Virus record (IMG/VR): IMGVR_UViG_3300005264_000112
Location: 1 to 20,010 of that record
Strand: one strand, 5' to 3'
Source of the DNA: a virus
DNA: 20,010 bases
The notes beneath the pieces were generated by a model. That model was not told the DNA's origin. It saw only the letters and a list, made by a program, of their open reading frames with translations, and did not search any database. The first letter of the stretch is position 1, and every line of letters starts with the position of its first letter. The translations under genes were made by a program, and so were the position numbers. This document shows positions 98 through 19,502 of the stretch, in pieces.

Positions 98-1039
98 ATG
101 AGTGAAACACAAAAAGAACAACCTAACTACTATGCTATATTAACAGCTGATGTAAGATATTCAAAAGAGTTAAATTTCTTTGAAAAAGTCTTATATGCTG
201 ATATAACAGCACTTACTAATAAAAATGGCTATTGTACTGCTTCAAATGGCTATTTTGCTGAAGTATTTGGCAAAGCAAAAGAAACAATATCACGAGCTAT
301 ATCAAAATTTGAAAAACTTGGCTTTTTAAAAGTCGTAATTACACGAGATAATGCAACAAAACAAATCATAGATAGAAAACTTTACCTATTGACAAAAATA
401 TCAATACCTATTAACGAAAACATCAATACCCCTATTGATGAAAATGTCAATACCCCTATTGATGAAAACATCAATACCCCTATTGATGAAAACATCAAAG
501 AGAATAATATAAATATTAATACTACAAGTAATAATAAAAAAAATAAACAAAAAAAATCACAAACTGAAATTTTACCACCTGAATTAAATATTGAAGCTTT
601 TGAAATGTGGATTGAGTACAAAGGTAAAAGCTATTCAAAACAAGGTAGAACACTAACTATAAATAAACTTATCAAATACCCTAAAGATGTTCAGCTACAG
701 ATGGTTGAAAATAGCATTATGAATAATTACAAAGGATTATTTGAAATAAAGCCACAAGGTAATCAAGTAGCACAATACCAGCAACAAAAACAAACTATAA
801 ACCCTTTTGAACTATATACAAACTATAGAAATAAAGGAATGGATAAAGAAGTAGCAACTGTAAGGGTTATTACTGAAACTGGTATGAAATACCCAGCTAC
901 AGATGACTTTAAAAAAGCTATTAATAATGCTGAATTTGCTTTGTATATGCAGCAAAGAGAACAACAACAAACACAATCACCAGCAAGTGATGAATATTAT
1001 CAAGAAAAATTACTAAAGGAACTTTACGATGAAAACTAG
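98..1039 (+). CDS. Phage replication initiator / replisome organizer (lambda O-like, HTH)
   Basis: This 313-residue protein probably binds the phage origin and recruits the helicase loader. Residues about 10-100 form a winged helix-turn-helix of the HTH_36 type found in phage replication proteins (recognition-helix region near FGKAKETISRAISKFEKLGF). Residues about 101-132 are four 8-residue repeats of the form INTPIDEN, followed by an Asn/Lys-rich linker. The C-terminal part (WIEYKGKSYS ... NNYKGLFE) resembles the second domain of DnaD/replisome-organizer proteins. The start is supported by GGAG at 88-91, six bases before the ATG. Its end overlaps the next gene by 11 bases. The coding repeats are also a DNA repeat array with dyad symmetry, as in lambda O. 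The family is reasonably sure; the exact subfamily is not. Confidence 0.8.
   Translation: MSETQKEQPNYYAILTADVRYSKELNFFEKVLYADITALTNKNGYCTASNGYFAEVFGKAKETISRAISKFEKLGFLKVVITRDNATKQIIDRKLYLLTKISIPINENINTPIDENVNTPIDENINTPIDENIKENNININTTSNNKKNKQKKSQTEILPPELNIEAFEMWIEYKGKSYSKQGRTLTINKLIKYPKDVQLQMVENSIMNNYKGLFEIKPQGNQVAQYQQQKQTINPFELYTNYRNKGMDKEVATVRVITETGMKYPATDDFKKAINNAEFALYMQQREQQQTQSPASDEYYQEKLLKELYDEN
398..493. repeat. Four 24-bp intragenic iterons with dyad symmetry: candidate replication origin
   Basis: Four in-frame 24-bp units run from 398 to 493; the first is degenerate. The last three carry the dyad ATCAATA-CCCC-TATTGAT, or a one-arm variant of it, at about 421-440, 445-464 and 469-488. 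An A/T-rich stretch follows at about 494-570. Dyad iterons inside an initiator gene, next to an A/T-rich segment, is the arrangement of lambda ori within gene O. Origin function is inferred. Confidence 0.6.
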
Positions 1040-1709
1040 AAGAAATGATTTTATACAAGCTATAGCTGATTTTTTAAAAATCAATTTAGAAAATAGTATC
1101 ACAAAAGAATACCTAGAAGTAGAAACTGGCTTTATAGCTGATGAATGGTATCTTGATTTTATAAATCATCTTGGAAATACTAAAGCTGATTATAAAAGAC
1201 CACTAGACCTATTTACAAGTGCAATCAATAGCTATAAAACGATTAAATTTCAAAAGTTATATGCAACAGTAGGTGAACAATCAAAAAAGCTTTTAGACAA
1301 ACTACAAGCAACTTTTAGAATATTTGATAATGGAGCTGTACCACCTGAATATTTAACTTATCAACATTTTACAGATAAAGACCCTGATACTGGTGAAAAA
1401 AAACCAACTTTTACAAAAAAACAAATAGAAGTTTTAAAAGATGTTGGAGATTGGCACTATGTTTATGGTCGTAGAAATGATATTTATAGTTTAACTGGAA
1501 TGATAGAACGAGCTTTTAAAAAAAGTGTAGAACAAAAGATAAAAGATACGAGCTTTGCACTTGGAAATGCACCACAAATAGGACACCAAGCAACAAAACT
1601 AATAAAAATGGTTGGTGATGAGCCAAAAGAGATACAGCAACATACAATTCACCCTAATATGGCTGCAATGATGGGAAATCTAACTAAAAAAGTGCGAGTG
1701 GGTGCATAG
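1029..1709 (+). CDS. Hypothetical phage protein in the position of a helicase loader
   Basis: This 226-residue soluble protein is not recognised. It is rich in Lys, Asp and aromatic residues and has no Walker A motif, signal peptide or membrane segment. Its ATG overlaps the end of the replication initiator gene by 11 bases, implying coupled translation. The position directly after an O-like initiator is that of lambda P (DnaB helicase loader), so a replication role is plausible, but no motif shows it. The stop overlaps a GTG start (TAGTG) of the methyltransferase reading frame. Confidence 0.6.
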   Translation: MKTRRNDFIQAIADFLKINLENSITKEYLEVETGFIADEWYLDFINHLGNTKADYKRPLDLFTSAINSYKTIKFQKLYATVGEQSKKLLDKLQATFRIFDNGAVPPEYLTYQHFTDKDPDTGEKKPTFTKKQIEVLKDVGDWHYVYGRRNDIYSLTGMIERAFKKSVEQKIKDTSFALGNAPQIGHQATKLIKMVGDEPKEIQQHTIHPNMAAMMGNLTKKVRVGA

Positions 1710-1816
1710 TGTTTAGTTTTGATTGGTCATTTGATGATTTGAAAAAAGTAGAACCAACTGGGCTTAAAGTGTTCAGCTGTTTTAGTTGTGGGGGGGGGGA
1801 GTTCTATGGGCTATAA
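1709..1816 (+). pseudogene. N-terminal part of the C5 methyltransferase, separated by the G10 tract
   Basis: A GTG at 1709-1711 overlaps the previous stop (TAGTG) and opens a frame encoding the missing methyltransferase N-terminus, including LKVFSCFSCGGG, the first half of motif I (SAM-binding FxGxGG type). The frame enters the G10 tract at 1790-1799 and reaches TAA at 1814-1816. With nine Gs it would fuse to the downstream frame, giving a protein of about 330 residues. As sequenced, only a peptide of 35 residues results. Confidence 0.7.
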
Positions 1817-2702
1817 ATTAGCTAGGTTTGATGTTGTTGGTAATGTTGAAATAGACCCACGAGTAAATAGCTGTTATATTGAAAATTTAAACCCAAAATT
1901 TAATTATTGTATGGATATTAGGGAGTTTAGAGAGTTTGAAGAGTTACCGGCTGAACTATATGAACTTGATATTTTAGATGGTAGCCCACCTTGTAGTTTG
2001 TTTAGTGGTGCAAATATGGTAGCTGATGAAAAAAAAGGTAAAGAAGTAAAATTTAGAGAGGGTCAAACTACCCAAGTGTTAGATGATTTGTTTTTTGAAT
2101 TTATCGCACTAGCTAAAAGACTTCAACCAAAAGTAGTAGTAGCTGAAAATGTAAAATTAGATGGTAGCAATATGGGAGTACCACAAAAAAGAAGAAGAGT
2201 ATTTTTTATGGCAATAAGAAAAGATTTACAGTTTGATACTGTTGATTTGTTTGGTGCTGAACCTAGGATTGATTTAGATTTTAAAGATGAAAAAATACCT
2301 TTTAAAAAAGTTTATACACAAAGTGGAAATAACTATTTTTTAAGTGATTTTTATAAGGATATTTGGAGTCATAGGTTACAAGGTGATAAAGATTTTAGCT
2401 GTACAAATGCTAGATATAGAAACAAACCTAATACTGGTTTTGGTCAAAACTATGTGTATATGAATGGGGTTTGTAATACTTTAACTGCTAAAAAAGATGT
2501 GATTGTATTGTTTGATGAGCCAAGATACCTAAATGATGATGAAAGAGTTAAGATTGGTACATTTCCAAAAGATTATAACTTTTTAGACCAACCACCACAC
2601 TATCTTATCGGTATGAGTGTACCACCTTTGATGACTTATAAAATAGCTATGGAAATTAAAAAGCAATGGCTAGATAAAAATAAAAATAGATTGGCTGCTT
2701 AA
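1788..2702 (+). CDS. DNA (cytosine-5) methyltransferase, main part, out of frame with its N-terminus
   Basis: C5-cytosine methyltransferases transfer a methyl group from SAM to cytosine in a target sequence. Residues numbered from the GTG at 1788: the end of motif I (GGGSSMGYKLA, then VEIDP), motif IV DGSPPCS with catalytic Cys69, motif VI ENV (120-122), motif VIII GVPQKRRR, motif IX CNTLTA and motif X IGMSVPP near the C-terminus. The GTG at 1788 would drop the first strand of motif I, so it is unlikely to be the true start; the real start is probably GTG 1709, joined through a slipping G tract. Only about eight residues separate ENV from GVPQ, against roughly 35-40 in M.HhaI, so the motif VII region seems lost. 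In a prophage it could protect against restriction or alter host methylation. The family call is secure; activity is doubtful. Confidence 0.88.
   Translation: MGGGSSMGYKLARFDVVGNVEIDPRVNSCYIENLNPKFNYCMDIREFREFEELPAELYELDILDGSPPCSLFSGANMVADEKKGKEVKFREGQTTQVLDDLFFEFIALAKRLQPKVVVAENVKLDGSNMGVPQKRRRVFFMAIRKDLQFDTVDLFGAEPRIDLDFKDEKIPFKKVYTQSGNNYFLSDFYKDIWSHRLQGDKDFSCTNARYRNKPNTGFGQNYVYMNGVCNTLTAKKDVIVLFDEPRYLNDDERVKIGTFPKDYNFLDQPPHYLIGMSVPPLMTYKIAMEIKKQWLDKNKNRLAA
1790..1799 (+). repeat. Poly-G tract (G10), candidate phase-variation switch
   Basis: Ten consecutive Gs in an otherwise AT-rich gene lie exactly where the methyltransferase frame breaks. Nine Gs (or 12) would restore motif I as SCGGGSSMG. 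Slipped-strand change of poly-G tracts is a known on/off mechanism in Campylobacterota. A sequencing error in the homopolymer cannot be excluded. Confidence 0.75.
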
Positions 2703-3150: not shown

Positions 3151-3377
3151 TGGTAACTTTAACAAAAGAGCAAGTGATAAATAAAATATTTGATATTTCA
3201 AATATGCGATTAGATGAACTTGAGGAATACGGAGTAAAAGTATCTATGAGTGATATAGATGCTAAAGCAAAACATTTTATTTATAAAGCTATTGATTGTA
3301 AAAAGCTAGAGCTAAAAGAGGTGCAAAAAGATGCCTTTGCAACAAATGGGGATATTGATGATATGGAGTTTAACTAA
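3150..3377 (+). CDS. Hypothetical small phage protein
   Basis: This 75-residue acidic protein begins MVTLTKEQVINKIFD. A GTG at 3141 in the same frame is possible, but the ATG at 3150 forms a TGATG junction with the small gene before it and is preferred. Its TAA overlaps the integrase ATG (TAATG). It looks helical. The position next to the integrase could suit an excisionase or regulator, but no HTH is evident and this is only positional. Confidence 0.55.
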   Translation: MVTLTKEQVINKIFDISNMRLDELEEYGVKVSMSDIDAKAKHFIYKAIDCKKLELKEVQKDAFATNGDIDDMEFN

Positions 3378-4441
3378 TGGTAAGTTCTAAAAGATATGGC
3401 TATAAAGTTCAGCTTAATCATCTTAAAAATGGTGATATAACCTATTACATCAGATACGATAATGAATGTAAGAAAGTGGGTCGTAAAAGTGAGGGTATAA
3501 CTGAAAAAAAGTGTATAGAACTTAGAAATCAGATACTAAGCGAACAAAGACACGGTATTGATTTGAGCCAAAAGAGTTTTAAACATCTTACTTTTAATAA
3601 ACTAGCTGAACGATATTTTGCTAGTTTGGAGGTATCAAGCCAAAAGAGATACCAACAAATGTATCAAAACCATATAGCCCCAAGCTTTGGTGATGTAGTA
3701 ATAGCAAAACTAAATGATAGTTTGATTGATGAGCTTAGAGCCTTAAAGCTTAGTGATGGGTATAGTGTGGCAACTGTAAAACAGTTTGTAAGTCTAGTAC
3801 AAAGGATAGCAAACTTTGGAATAAAAAGAGGGATAATATCATACAGCCCTTTTAGGGATATAAAGCCTTTTAAAATCAATAATACTAGACTTAGATATTT
3901 AAGTAAAGATGAAATATCTACACTTTTTGAAGATGTAAAAGATGATGTAGTTTTAAATCTATTTGTAAAGATAGCACTAGGAACTGGTGCGAGAGCTAGA
4001 AGTATATTATCACTTCAAAAAAAAGATATAAACCTTGAAAATAGAAGTATCACACTAAAGGATTTTAAACGAAATAATACTTATATAGGGTATTTAGATG
4101 ATAATACTTTTGAATTGGTGGCTGAACATATAAAGCCATTTGGTGCAAATGGTTATGTAGTTTCACTTAGTGGAGTTACTGCAAAATACCAAAATATCTA
4201 TCTATCACTAACACAAATATTTAAACAATTTAACAAAGACTTAAGCCCTGATGATAGAGCCAATAGAGTTGTAATCCATACACTAAGACACACTTTTGCA
4301 AGTCATTTAGCAATCAATGGCGTGTCAATCCAAGAGATACAAAAACTAATGAACCACAAAGATATTAAGCAAACTATGAAGTATGCAAAACTAATGCCTG
4401 ATAGTGGTAGAAAATTTATAACAGATTTATATAAGGGGTAA
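3377..4441 (+). CDS. int: Tyrosine site-specific recombinase (phage integrase)
   Basis: Integrates and excises the phage by strand exchange between attP and attB through a covalent phosphotyrosine. At 354 residues it has the usual integrase length. An N-terminal arm-binding-like region (1-60) precedes a SAM-like core-binding domain (about 65-165) and the catalytic domain (about 175-350). The conserved residues are all present: Arg206 in GTGARARS, His301 and Arg304 in HTLRHTF, His327 in LMNHKD and nucleophile Tyr336 in TMKYAKL. It starts at TAATG, coupled to the gene before. It lies inside the single-direction operon, between early genes and the packaging block, rather than at an obvious prophage end. 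No att core could be identified. Confidence 0.95.
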   Translation: MVSSKRYGYKVQLNHLKNGDITYYIRYDNECKKVGRKSEGITEKKCIELRNQILSEQRHGIDLSQKSFKHLTFNKLAERYFASLEVSSQKRYQQMYQNHIAPSFGDVVIAKLNDSLIDELRALKLSDGYSVATVKQFVSLVQRIANFGIKRGIISYSPFRDIKPFKINNTRLRYLSKDEISTLFEDVKDDVVLNLFVKIALGTGARARSILSLQKKDINLENRSITLKDFKRNNTYIGYLDDNTFELVAEHIKPFGANGYVVSLSGVTAKYQNIYLSLTQIFKQFNKDLSPDDRANRVVIHTLRHTFASHLAINGVSIQEIQKLMNHKDIKQTMKYAKLMPDSGRKFITDLYKG

Positions 4442-15947: not shown

Positions 15948-17826
15948 TTTAGCTACTGAAGTTGCAAATCTAAACATAAATGCCGCTGAACTGTTGGCAA
16001 AATATGATAGTGCTTTTGCAGCACTTGGTGAGGCTGGTGATGCTATAAAAGCAGAACTTGAAGCAATTATTGCTACAGAAAATATAAAGTCTATTGTTGT
16101 ATCTACTACAGCAATAACTGGTAATGACATTGTAGTAAATAGCTACTCAACAGATTTTACTTTAAATGCAATAGCATATCTTGATGGTGTAGATATTGCA
16201 TACTTTGAGGTTGATTGGGGCGATGATACAGCATTACAAACAGTAAATGCTACAAACAATCAAGCAATAGCTAGTCATGTGTTTGCAGATGGTGCTATTG
16301 GTGATATATATACTTTTAAAGTAACAGCAGTTGATACTTTGGGTAACAAAGGTTCACAAACTACTAAAAGTGTAACAGTAGCAGACAATCATGCACCTAC
16401 TGCACCAACAGTATCATCTGTAGCTGAAATATCTAAACTAAATACATTTGATATTGCGATGAGTGGTTCAACTGATACAGATGGTGATAGTATAATTTAC
16501 AGTTTATCTTCAAGTGTATTTACATTTAGTAAATCTACAGGCATTGCTGAAAATGAAGTTGTAACCGTAACAGCACCTGATGTAACAGATGATACTGCTT
16601 ATACATTTGAAGCTGTAGCGGTTGATAGTAAAGGTATGCAATCAACAGTTACAACTACAACAGTAACAGTCCTTGCTATTACTCATGGTGATATTGGTGT
16701 GGCTGGTGAGCGAGGTTTTGGTGTTGGTATTGCACCAACATTGCCGACTGGATTTAGTGAAATGACTGGAACTACAGATGTAAACTCTCCAAACTATGGT
16801 AATTATACAGATAGTAGTGGTTCTGTAATGGTTTATATACCAAAATGTTACTACAAGATAGATGGAAATAACATCTACTATTCATCTACACCGCAAGATG
16901 GATATCAACTTGAGAGAGCTTTTATTGATGGTGGTGTTGAGAGAGATGGTATATTTGTTGATAAATACCATTGTGGTAATGAAAATGGAGTGTTTGTATC
17001 TAAACAAGGGATTGACCCAGTATCTACAAGCTCGTCACACAATCCAATATCCGCCATAAATGGATGTACTGCTGATACTTATGAGCAAGTATTTAATGCT
17101 GTTAAATCAAGAGGCGCAGATTATGGTGTAACGCCTATATTTGTATATACAATGTTGGCAAGAATGTCAATAGCACATCAACAAGCTTCAACTGGTACTA
17201 CAAACTGTGCATGGAATGATATAGCACCGTATGCACCAAAAGGATGTAATAACAATGCTTTGGCTGATGTAAATGATACAGACCTTATTTTTACTGGTAG
17301 TGGTTATAGTAACTGTGCTTTAACTGGTAGTGCTTTGGTTCTTGCAAAAACTACTCACAATGGTCAAGACTGTGGTATAGCAGACCTAAACGGAAATATG
17401 TACGATATTCCATCTTGTTTTACAAGAAACGATGCAGATGGTTTCCTCGTTTTAAAAGAGACAGCTTCATTTAAAGATATAGATTTAACAAACTATTCTG
17501 ATAATACAATCTATGATGTGATTGATATAAGTGATGTTGTTGCTGGTAATGATGGCTGGACTTACTTTGGGAATGGAACAAATGCAGTATTTGATATGAG
17601 TGCAAGAACCAACATAGGTATTCCGTTAGCTGGTGGTGTATCTGGTACTGGAACTAGCCAGTTTGGTAATGATGGTCTATATAGATACTTAAGAGATGGT
17701 TTGGTTCCGCTTGTCGGCGGTTACTGGGGTAATGCCGCTAATGCTGGTGTGTTCTACTTGCATTTGAACACTGTTCGTTCGAGCTCGGGCACTTTTGTTG
17801 GTGGTCGTGCCTCTGTGATTTTGTAG
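15940..17826 (+). CDS. DGR-diversified tail fibre/adhesin with Ig-like domains and C-type-lectin-like C-terminus
   Basis: This 628-residue protein is the target of the retroelement and probably binds the host surface. Residues 1-55 are helical (ELLAKYDSAFAALGEAGDAI) and may trimerise or attach to the baseplate. About 60-150 resemble a PKD domain (YFEVDWGDDTALQTV, GNKGSQTTKSVTV). About 155-245 form a second cadherin/Ig-like domain (SGSTDTDGDSIIYSLSSS). About 250-628 look like the FGE/C-type-lectin fold of DGR variable proteins, with ADLNGNMYDIPSCF and a C-terminal NAANAGVFYL block. The last 41 residues are encoded by the variable repeat; changed sites are L588 (silent), Y595, G597, H608, T611, S615, G617, F619 and A624. 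The ATG at 15940 is chosen because AAAGGAG lies at 15927-15933; a TTG one codon earlier is also in frame. Confidence 0.88.
   Translation: MADLATEVANLNINAAELLAKYDSAFAALGEAGDAIKAELEAIIATENIKSIVVSTTAITGNDIVVNSYSTDFTLNAIAYLDGVDIAYFEVDWGDDTALQTVNATNNQAIASHVFADGAIGDIYTFKVTAVDTLGNKGSQTTKSVTVADNHAPTAPTVSSVAEISKLNTFDIAMSGSTDTDGDSIIYSLSSSVFTFSKSTGIAENEVVTVTAPDVTDDTAYTFEAVAVDSKGMQSTVTTTTVTVLAITHGDIGVAGERGFGVGIAPTLPTGFSEMTGTTDVNSPNYGNYTDSSGSVMVYIPKCYYKIDGNNIYYSSTPQDGYQLERAFIDGGVERDGIFVDKYHCGNENGVFVSKQGIDPVSTSSSHNPISAINGCTADTYEQVFNAVKSRGADYGVTPIFVYTMLARMSIAHQQASTGTTNCAWNDIAPYAPKGCNNNALADVNDTDLIFTGSGYSNCALTGSALVLAKTTHNGQDCGIADLNGNMYDIPSCFTRNDADGFLVLKETASFKDIDLTNYSDNTIYDVIDISDVVAGNDGWTYFGNGTNAVFDMSARTNIGIPLAGGVSGTGTSQFGNDGLYRYLRDGLVPLVGGYWGNAANAGVFYLHLNTVRSSSGTFVGGRASVIL
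17699..17812 (+). repeat. DGR variable repeat (VR)
   Basis: This stretch aligns without gaps to the template repeat at 18258-18371 (offset 559). Of 114 positions, 103 are identical and 11 differ: 17703, 17722, 17728, 17761, 17771, 17783, 17788, 17789, 17794, 17795 and 17810. All 11 are A in TR (five changed to G, three to T, three to C). The VR covers the last codons of the target gene up to residue 625. TGTTGGTGGTCGTG (17796-17809) is an A-free identical block near the 3' end and could be part of the initiation-of-mutagenic-homing site. Confidence 0.96.
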
Positions 17827-17841
17827 AGTGAGCGATAGCGA

Positions 17842-18231
17842 ATGACTAATAAAGGTGAAGTGGTACTTTATAGGAAGTATTTTGAGATGATAAAACTGTT
17901 AAATATATATCTTAATCATTTTCCAAAGCACGAGAAATATGCTTTAGCTAACAGAATAAGAGATAATGCTTATGAAGTCTATGATTTGATAGTTGAATGT
18001 CAAAAGAGGTACTACAAAAAGACCACATTAACCCAGTTAGATATTTCGCATGAAAAGCTTAGAATGCAGTTGTATCTTGCAAATGAATTAGACTACTTTA
18101 ACTATAAAGATGGTCGAAAAGGCAAGATAAACCAAAACAGATATTTAGCTATTTCACGACTTATTGATGAAATAGGCAAACTAATAGGTGCTTGGATAGC
18201 CAAGCTAAAACAAGATGGTAACTTTAAGTAA
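17842..18231 (+). CDS. avd: DGR accessory variability determinant (Avd-like four-helix protein)
   Basis: Avd proteins form a small helical pentamer that binds the DGR reverse transcriptase and its RNA and is required for mutagenic cDNA synthesis. This 129-residue, Lys-rich, Tyr-rich protein is predicted all-helical, with segments LYRKYFEMIKLLNIYLNHF, KYALANRIRDNAYEVYDLIV, LRMQLYLANELDYF and YLAISRLIDEIGKLIGAWI. These are typical of the Avd/four-helix-bundle family. It lies between the target gene (16 bases after its stop) and the TR (26 bases downstream), which is the usual DGR order. Sequence alone would leave room for a generic four-helix protein; the context makes Avd likely. Confidence 0.88.
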   Translation: MTNKGEVVLYRKYFEMIKLLNIYLNHFPKHEKYALANRIRDNAYEVYDLIVECQKRYYKKTTLTQLDISHEKLRMQLYLANELDYFNYKDGRKGKINQNRYLAISRLIDEIGKLIGAWIAKLKQDGNFK

Positions 18232-18257
18232 TCATTTGAGGGGCATTGTATTGATAT

Positions 18258-18371
18258 GTTTAGTTCCGCTTGTCGGCGGTAACTGGAGTAATGCCGCTAA
18301 TGCTGGTGTGTTCTACTTGAATTTGAACAATGTTCGTTCGAACTCGAACACTAATGTTGGTGGTCGTGACT
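18258..18371 (+). repeat. DGR template repeat (TR)
   Basis: Non-coding template copied with A-specific errors into the VR. It lies between avd and the RT gene, 90 bases before the RT start. It holds 23 adenines. Nine codon-aligned AAC/AAT triplets are present; these can mutate widely without creating stops, which is a DGR hallmark. An open frame of 84 codons (18215-18469) runs across it and mimics the target C-terminus, but this reflects descent from a target gene end, not a separate protein. Confidence 0.95.
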
Positions 18372-18450
18372 GTTGCTTCAACCTGATACTTCAAAATGAA
18401 GAAACTGGAGCAAGAGGGATACAAGTTCCTGCGGTAAGCGAAATCTATAG

Positions 18451-18464
18451 AGGAGGATTATTTG
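18451..18464 (+). promoter_or_regulatory. Strong ribosome binding site deciding the RT start
   Basis: AGGAGG (18451-18456) is five bases before a TTG at 18462 and fourteen before an ATG at 18471. The spacing favours TTG as the RT start, adding three residues. Confidence 0.6.
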
Positions 18465-19502
18465 AGTAGTATGAAAAGTGTTAGCTTTGGTATCGAAAAT
18501 CTAAACTCCTCGAAAAGAATTGGGCATTTATTTGAGAAAGCATTTACAAAAGATAATCTGTATATTGCTTATCTTGACACTATAAAAGGCAAAAGAAAAA
18601 AAGTGAAAACATTTAGATTTGAAAAAAATCTCGGTACTAATTTAGACACTCTACACAAAGAGCTACATGATGGAAGTTATGAGTTATCACCATATAACGA
18701 ATTTACTGTTTATGAGCCAAAAGAGAGAGTTATAAGAGCACCGCATTTTAGAGATTTAATTGTTCAACATGCCATTTATAGAACTATATATACCATCTTT
18801 AACAAAACCTTTGTTGATACTAGCTTTGCTTGTAGAAAAGGTGGCGGAACTCATAAGGCTAGTGTGTATATGCAGCAAGAAATGAGAAAATATGATGGTG
18901 ATATGTACTATGCAAAACTTGATATTAAAAAGTTCTTTTATTCGATAGATAGAGAGATTTTAAGAACTCTGTTTGAAAAAAAGATAAAAGATAAAAGGTT
19001 TGTTGATTTGATGATTAGATTTGCAAATATGGATGGCGACAAGGGTATCCCAATAGGAAACCTCCTGAGCCAACTATATGCACTAATTTATCTAAATGAG
19101 CTTGACCACTTTATAAAAAGAGATTTAAAAATTAAATCTTATGTGAGATATGTTGATGATTTTGTTGCCATAGGCTTAACACTTCAAGAGGCTAAGGACT
19201 TCAAAGAGAAATGTGAGAAATTCGTGCGAAATAAATTAAATCTTGAATTGAGCCATTGGACTATAGGAAAGATTAAGCGAAGCATTAACTTTGTTGGGTA
19301 TCGAACATGGCGAAGTGTAAAGTTTGTTAGAAAGCATAGTATGTATAAGTTTAGAAAAGCACTTGTTAGTGCAGATATACCATCTCTTGGTTCATGTGTC
19401 GGTCATGCAGTAGGAACTGCAACGATGAAATACTATAGAGATATGGTGCAAATGCAAAAAATTAATTTACCAAAAGGAGTAGTTAGATGTTTAAATATGT
19501 AG
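18462..19502 (+). CDS. DGR reverse transcriptase
   Basis: Copies the TR RNA into error-prone cDNA that replaces the VR. The 346 residues carry the retroelement RT order: KERVIRAPHFRDLIVQHAIY (about 87-106), RKGGGTHKA (125-133), LDIKKFFYSID (153-163) with the first catalytic Asp154, GIPIGNLLSQ (195-204) and YVDD (230-233) with the other two catalytic Asp. The IGxxxSQ form in place of the group II intron QGxxxSP is the DGR-type signature linked to misincorporation opposite adenine. It ends after a short thumb without a maturase or endonuclease domain, as expected. All catalytic residues are present, so the enzyme looks intact. The 3' end overlaps the next gene by 16 bases. Confidence 0.96.
   Translation: MSSMKSVSFGIENLNSSKRIGHLFEKAFTKDNLYIAYLDTIKGKRKKVKTFRFEKNLGTNLDTLHKELHDGSYELSPYNEFTVYEPKERVIRAPHFRDLIVQHAIYRTIYTIFNKTFVDTSFACRKGGGTHKASVYMQQEMRKYDGDMYYAKLDIKKFFYSIDREILRTLFEKKIKDKRFVDLMIRFANMDGDKGIPIGNLLSQLYALIYLNELDHFIKRDLKIKSYVRYVDDFVAIGLTLQEAKDFKEKCEKFVRNKLNLELSHWTIGKIKRSINFVGYRTWRSVKFVRKHSMYKFRKALVSADIPSLGSCVGHAVGTATMKYYRDMVQMQKINLPKGVVRCLNM

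What the first reader, a model, noticed from the sequence alone, without database searches (positions are those of the whole stretch)
1709..2702. Poly-G tract splits a phage C5 methyltransferase: candidate phase-variable epigenetic switch
Motif I is divided between two frames exactly at G10. G9 joins GTG 1709 to the rest, giving about 330 residues with motif I restored as FSCGGGSSMG. This points to slipped-strand ON/OFF switching of a prophage methyltransferase, which could toggle restriction evasion or host gene expression.
Basis: partly seen in the sequence, partly recalled or inferred. Interest (0 to 1): 0.8.

Follow-up and report, generated by a model that had tools for sequence, protein, structure and literature searches.

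The report
Phage DNA-methylase gene with poly-G switch
A bacterial virus carries a DNA-marking gene whose run of ten Gs puts it out of frame (OFF); many related viruses carry the same kind of run at 8 to 11 Gs in ON and OFF versions, so it looks like a real genetic on/off switch, although this copy has also lost a piece and may not work even when switched on.

Summary
G10 (1790-1799) is the only G run of 8 or more on either strand; it splits motif I of a C5 cytosine methyltransferase, and G9 would join the frames (330 aa). I treated it as a family question. The same glycine triplet is a G8-G14 run in 45 of 190 distinct relatives, 29 ON and 16 OFF; none of 145 members without a run is frame-broken there. 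Near-identical phage contigs from different metagenomes differ only at the tract (G10/G9/G8 over 6-9 kb; G11/G10 over 6 kb). Unrelated methyltransferases in sister phages also carry G8-G10 runs. LoVEphage and its relatives carry an independent poly-C switch in the same gene (C8 OFF, C9 ON, C10 OFF). So slipped-strand phase variation of phage-encoded methyltransferases is well supported and recurrent.

G9 would therefore probably not restore a normal enzyme here. Reversible switching, methylation and phenotype are untested. I found no earlier description in the papers searched. Verdict: new variant of a known kind (SSR phase variation, here carried by phages), with a side association to diversity-generating retroelements.

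The parts
1790..1799 (+). G10 tract in the three glycine codons of motif I (ON length 9; here OFF)
   Evidence: relatives G8-G14 at the same codons
1709..1816 (+). Upstream fragment: GTG start overlapping the previous stop; 35 codons, stop just after the tract
   Evidence: in L089 the same gene starts ATG and is full length (359 aa)
1788..2702 (+). Downstream fragment: C5 cytosine methyltransferase body (PF00145, phrog_116), 304 codons
   Evidence: dN/dS 0.21 against L089
1772..1811 (+). Motif I region, FSCFSC-GGG-SSMG, split between frames by the tract
1986..1994 (+). Motif IV, PPC (catalytic cysteine)
   Evidence: invariant in alignment A2
2145..2153 (+). Motif VI, ENV
   Evidence: invariant
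2156..2157 (+). Junction of an 87-bp in-frame deletion (29 residues, between motifs VI and VIII)
   Evidence: AlphaFold2 models
2172..2207 (+). Motif VIII region, MGVPQKRRRVFF
2610..2627 (+). C-terminal conserved motif GMSVPP
1029..1709 (+). 226-aa gene of unknown function just upstream; marks one side of the cargo slot
   Evidence: conserved in L089
2702..3025 (+). 107-aa gene just downstream; with the integrase (3377-4441) marks the other side of the slot

Best explanation
The gene is an orphan C5 cytosine DNA methyltransferase of a temperate tailed phage, probably of Sulfurimonas or a near relative. The three glycine codons of its SAM-binding motif I have become one G run, and replication slippage at that run switches the enzyme ON (G9) and OFF (any length that is not 9 + 3n), so that a phage population holds both states. 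OFF truncates the protein inside motif I, so the enzyme is fully absent. The most likely use is bet-hedging of phage (and lysogen) DNA methylation: ON protects against restriction enzymes that cut unmethylated sites, and OFF avoids modification-dependent restriction or the cost of methylation. In this record the switch is OFF, and the copy also carries a 29-residue deletion that probably cripples the enzyme whatever the tract length. Shown: the tract, its frame effect, ON and OFF alleles in relatives, and length differences between near-identical phages. Inferred: the slippage mechanism, reversibility, and the benefit.
For: (1) Tract and frames. (2) The nearest relative, L089 (Sulfurimonas MAG, 78% local identity, same gene order), has G9 and an intact 359-aa ORF. 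(3) Survey: 45 of 190 distinct family members have a run of 8 or more, 29 ON and 16 OFF; 0 of 145 without a run are broken at motif I. On the set found by patterns downstream of the tract: 6/14 OFF against 0/151, Fisher 1e-7; 14 runs seen against 4.5 expected from GGG codon use. (4) Length polymorphism: L183 G10 / L208 G8, 9456 bp, 6 mismatches, tract the only indel; L183 / L194 G9, 6334 bp, 5 mismatches; L201 G11 / L227 G10, 6024 bp, 1 mismatch; A/T runs of 7-8 in the same stretches are unchanged. (5) The tract state changes at least 12-16 times on the tree. (6) Convergence: LoVEphage-type phages use poly-C just after the start codon of the same gene: C8 OFF, C9 ON (364 aa), C10 OFF. (7) Other phage methyltransferases carry such runs: N6/N4 type in L227, L203, L093, L260; C5-like in L243; L199/L203 differ only there (G8/G9, 7847 bp, no mismatch). 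(8) dN/dS 0.21 against L089.
Against: No raw reads: the window's G10 is one assembled consensus. Slippage is inferred from length differences, not watched. The 29-residue deletion means the window copy may be a decaying gene in which tract length no longer matters. The tract lengths of relatives are assembly consensuses as well. G runs in places without an obvious switch role also vary (L190 G11 / L214 G12 near the end of a small gene), so variability alone does not prove selection. The excess of tracts over codon-usage expectation is about threefold and the members are related. Methylation and phenotype are untested.
Confidence: 0.8

Rival explanations
1. The window copy is simply a pseudogene: it took an 87-bp deletion, lost function, and the G tract then drifted out of frame without consequence.
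For: A unique 29-residue deletion between motifs VI and VIII, seen in no other measured member; the junction has low model confidence.
Against: The tract is present and in frame in the intact sister L089 and in many lineages, so it did not arise through decay. There is no other stop or frameshift in 304 codons, and dN/dS is 0.21, so decay, if any, is very recent.
Confidence: 0.4
2. G10 is a sequencing or assembly error, and the true phage has G9.
For: Homopolymers are the commonest place for such errors; the sister has G9.
Against: OFF lengths recur in independent records, including bacterial isolate genomes (L157, L158 at 20x and 143x by their record titles) and GenBank phage genomes (C8 and C10). 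Whole-contig comparisons show no other indel.
Confidence: 0.12
3. The run is not a DNA-level switch but a programmed slippage site: polymerase or ribosome slippage on the G run makes a fixed fraction of full-length enzyme from either length.
For: Long G runs could in principle slip at transcription; the downstream frame of the window stays open and conserved.
Against: DNA lengths differ between near-identical phages, and many members are ON at the DNA level. A fixed programmed site would keep one length.
Confidence: 0.08
4. The tract is a neutral by-product: three adjacent glycine codons occasionally drift to GGG GGG GGG, and the run is unstable but not selected.
For: Motif I needs three glycines in nearly every member, so runs can arise by synonymous change; other non-switch G runs in these phages vary too.
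Against: Runs exceed codon-usage expectation, recur in non-homologous methyltransferases at non-motif-I positions, and a separate poly-C run sits at the start of the same gene in LoVEphage.
Confidence: 0.2

Closest known systems
SSR phase-variable methyltransferases of bacteria (Type III mod genes; Helicobacter G-tract Type III; Campylobacter Cj0031 Type IIG)
   Same: A simple-sequence tract inside the methyltransferase reading frame gives ON/OFF expression (PMC12003011, PMC13076061, PMC4889913).
   Different: Those are host-encoded restriction-modification genes. Here the gene is phage-borne, C5-type, apparently orphan, and the tract is motif I itself.
Phage orphan C5 methyltransferases (phrog_116; Cellulophaga phi18:3 gp32, Flavobacterium phage tooticki, LoVEphage)
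   Same: Same protein family, 46-59% identity, same motifs.
   Different: Most members have mixed glycine codons and no tract; the window copy alone lacks 29 residues.
Prophage methyltransferases of the Bacteroides fragilis group ('roving methyltransferases', PMC10333322)
   Same: Phage-carried methyltransferase cargo that swaps between phages and diversifies methylomes.
   Different: A term search of that paper found no homopolymer or poly-G switching.
Phage diversity-generating retroelements (tropism switching)
   Same: Another phage-encoded way to vary a host-interaction trait; present in this same phage, and a reverse transcriptase next to the tail fibre gene is reported for LoVEphage (PMC8525569).
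   Different: A DGR mutates a tail protein by reverse transcription; it does not switch a gene ON/OFF by tract length.

Membership tests
C5 cytosine DNA methyltransferase (PF00145) | Profile match over the curated cut-off | tested here: met
   99.6 bits against cut-off 22
C5 cytosine DNA methyltransferase (PF00145) | Motifs I, IV (PPC), VI (ENV), VIII (QxRxR) and C-terminal motif all present in one reading frame | tested here: not met
   All are present, but motif I is split between frames at G10; met in the sister L089
C5 cytosine DNA methyltransferase (PF00145) | Complete fold between motifs VI and VIII (helix and strand) | tested here: not met
   29 residues missing; L089 model helix 154-169 and strand 172-180 have no counterpart in the window model
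SSR phase-variable (contingency) locus | Homopolymer whose length decides the reading frame | tested here: met
SSR phase-variable (contingency) locus | Both ON and OFF lengths in nature, in otherwise near-identical DNA | tested here: met
   Met for relatives; the window phage itself has only one record
SSR phase-variable (contingency) locus | High-frequency, reversible switching in culture | not testable with these tools
   needs clones and reads
Phasevarion (methylation-dependent regulon) | Host gene expression differs between ON and OFF | not testable with these tools
   needs RNA-seq of ON and OFF lysogens
Type II restriction-modification system | Cognate restriction endonuclease next to the methyltransferase | tested here: not met
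   The neighbouring genes scanned have no endonuclease match; small neighbours without any match cannot be fully excluded

The most novel reading that the evidence does not exclude
Phages, not only bacteria, run their own multi-gene phase-variable methylomes. Several unrelated methyltransferases per phage are under independent homopolymer switches, evolved repeatedly and often together with a diversity-generating retroelement, so that a phage population bet-hedges receptor choice and restriction/anti-restriction state at once.
Probability: 0.5. Interest if true: 0.85.

Novelty: new variant of a known kind. Interest (0 to 1): 0.7.

Why it matters
Phase-variable methyltransferases are known as bacterial traits. 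Finding the switch in phages, in several methyltransferase classes and by two different tracts in one gene, suggests that phages hedge their own modification state. It makes a testable prediction: ON and OFF phage stocks should plate differently on hosts with conventional versus modification-dependent restriction. LoVEphage, a common and inducible gut prophage (PMC12629997), has natural C8, C9 and C10 genomes and is a ready test case. It also warns that automatic annotation starts such genes at the wrong codon (LoVEphage OFF records are annotated from MGYK) and that consensus assemblies hide the switch.

Tried and rejected
Single-protein search of IMG/VR with the window protein found nothing; an alignment was needed. 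The class-wide search of 397 genomes around the Sulfurimonas MAG found only that MAG and one contig in a bin labelled Helicobacteraceae that aligns best with a Muribaculaceae contig. The Bacteroidales pattern search gave 1 of 393 genomes, so the trait is rare per genome and prophage-borne. The 226-aa neighbour gave no IMG/VR relatives. The idea that the whole family lacks residues between motifs VI and VIII was rejected. The idea that G10 is only an assembly error was set low because OFF alleles recur in isolate genomes and GenBank phages. A whole-locus comparison of L215 with L197 was uninformative (the two are only distantly alike). Literature searches for phage-encoded homopolymer-switched methyltransferases found none; the library holds open-licence papers only, so 'not described' is not proven.

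Full report
OBSERVATION. The window is a virus record of a tailed temperate phage: tyrosine integrase, GpA-type terminase, lambda-type portal, HK97-type capsid. G10 occupies 1790-1799 and is the only G run of 8 or more on either strand (0.05 expected). The frame from GTG 1709 ends at 1814-1816; the methyltransferase body is open from 1788 to 2702. A tract one base shorter joins them into 330 aa with motif I FSCGGGSSMG.

Aligned to its relatives, the protein lacks 29 residues between motif VI (ENVK) and motif VIII (MGVPQ). Every other measured translation has 36-38 residues in that stretch (172 with 36, 3 with 38); the window has 7 (the three rows with 7 are the window itself and two sub-loci of it). 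In AlphaFold2 models of the sister protein L089 the missing part is a helix (154-169) and a strand (172-180); the window model lacks both and has pLDDT below 50 at residues 148-150, at motif VI. A model cannot prove loss of function, but in a family with this constant length the deletion most likely cripples the enzyme. The lesion is 87 bp and in frame; the rest is intact with dN/dS 0.21 against L089, so the damage looks recent.

FAMILY SURVEY. Relatives were found with patterns downstream of the tract, so the search did not prefer any tract state. Most members spell the three glycines with mixed codons. Fourteen of 165 have a run of 8 or more against 4.5 expected from each locus's own GGG codon use (members are related, so its p-value is only indicative). 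Six of the 14 are out of frame at exactly that place, against 0 of 151 without a run (Fisher 1e-7). A DNA pattern for C-F-x-C followed by G8 then gave 59 IMG/VR contigs, most of them this gene, with lengths G8 to G14. Pooled and de-duplicated: 29 ON and 16 OFF with a run, 145 ON and 0 OFF without (this concerns the motif-I frame only). On a tree of the part downstream of the tract the label changes at least 16 times, 12 forced by well-supported branches, so tracts come and go repeatedly.

LENGTH POLYMORPHISM IN NEAR-IDENTICAL PHAGES. This is the strongest evidence. L183 (G10, OFF) and L208 (G8, OFF) share 9456 bp with 6 mismatches, and the tract is the only indel. L183 and L194 (G9, ON) share 6334 bp with 5 mismatches, tract the only indel. 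L201 (G11) and L227 (G10), both OFF, share 6024 bp with 1 mismatch, tract the only indel. Each contig comes from a different metagenome record. A and T runs of 7-8 in the same stretches are unchanged, though those are shorter than the G runs.

OTHER SWITCHES. The N6/N4 methyltransferase just upstream of the C5 gene in L227/L201 has its own G9 run. L199 (G8, frame broken) and L203 (G9, open) are identical over 7847 bp except for a run in another N6/N4 methyltransferase. L093 has both its C5 and its N6/N4 genes broken at G runs. Among the nearest phages by terminase, L241 and L242 have no methyltransferase between the replication genes and the integrase; L260 has a different C5 enzyme plus an N6/N4 enzyme with G8; L243 has a third, C5-like enzyme with G9. 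LoVEphage-type Bacteroides phages have no motif-I run but a poly-C run right after the start codon of the same C5 gene: C8 in MW660583, PQ571265 and OY731433 (18-20 codons, OFF), C9 in OY725593 and OY731444 (364 codons, ON), C10 in PQ571302 (OFF); OFF and ON stretches differ by this one indel plus point changes. A different tract evolved in the same gene, which argues that the switch itself is favoured.

NEIGHBOURING DGR. The window holds an Avd gene, a reverse transcriptase and a 114-nt template/variable repeat pair. The RT family was found in 10 of 31 tract-bearing viral contigs of 20 kb or more against 0 of 25 without a motif-I tract, and linked within about 41 kb in 8 of 9 tract-bearing prophages against 5 of 30 others; two of those five are LoVEphage-type and carry the poly-C switch. 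Host lineage (gut Bacteroidales) is a confounder, so this is an association only.

MECHANISM AND LIMITS. Shown: the tract, the frame effect, ON and OFF alleles, and natural length differences. Inferred: slipped-strand mispairing during replication (established for G/C runs in bacteria), reversibility, and bet-hedging of modification state. Not shown: reads, methylation, phenotype. For the window copy, G9 would restore the frame but probably not the enzyme.

NOVELTY. Homopolymer-switched methyltransferases are known in bacteria. In the papers searched I found no report of the switch in phage-encoded methyltransferases; the library is incomplete. I rate it a new variant of a known kind.

Noticed in passing
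window 17699-19502: A complete-looking diversity-generating retroelement: variable repeat 17699-17812 at the end of a tail-type gene, Avd 17842-18231, template repeat 18258-18371 (90% identical), reverse transcriptase 18462-19502. The RT is over-represented in phages with the tract-bearing methyltransferase.
   Followed up: partly
L005:2911-2920, L036:3526-3533, L094:4913-4920, L098:4905-4914, L320-L324: LoVEphage-type phages carry a poly-C run just after the start codon of the same C5 methyltransferase; C9 is ON, C8 and C10 are OFF, and OFF records are annotated from an internal methionine.
   Followed up: yes
L227:540-548, L203:10724-11428, L093:6769-7526, L260:4036-4719, L243:99-692: Non-homologous phage methyltransferases (N6/N4 and C5-like) with their own G8-G10 runs; L199 and L203 are identical over 7.8 kb except for one such run.
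   Followed up: partly
L190, L212, L214, L195 (for example L214:6475-6486): A G11-G13 run near the end of a small unrelated gene also varies between otherwise identical contigs; its effect, if any, is unclear.
   Followed up: no
window 385-498: About five tandem copies of a 24-nt unit inside the replication-initiation gene, possibly origin iterons as in lambda O.
   Followed up: no
window 1710-2701 against L241, L242, L260: The interval between the replication genes and the integrase is a cargo slot: empty, one methyltransferase, or two different ones in close sister phages.
   Followed up: partly
L096: The contig in a bin labelled Helicobacteraceae aligns best with a Muribaculaceae prophage contig (L092); probably a mis-binned contig.
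   Followed up: no
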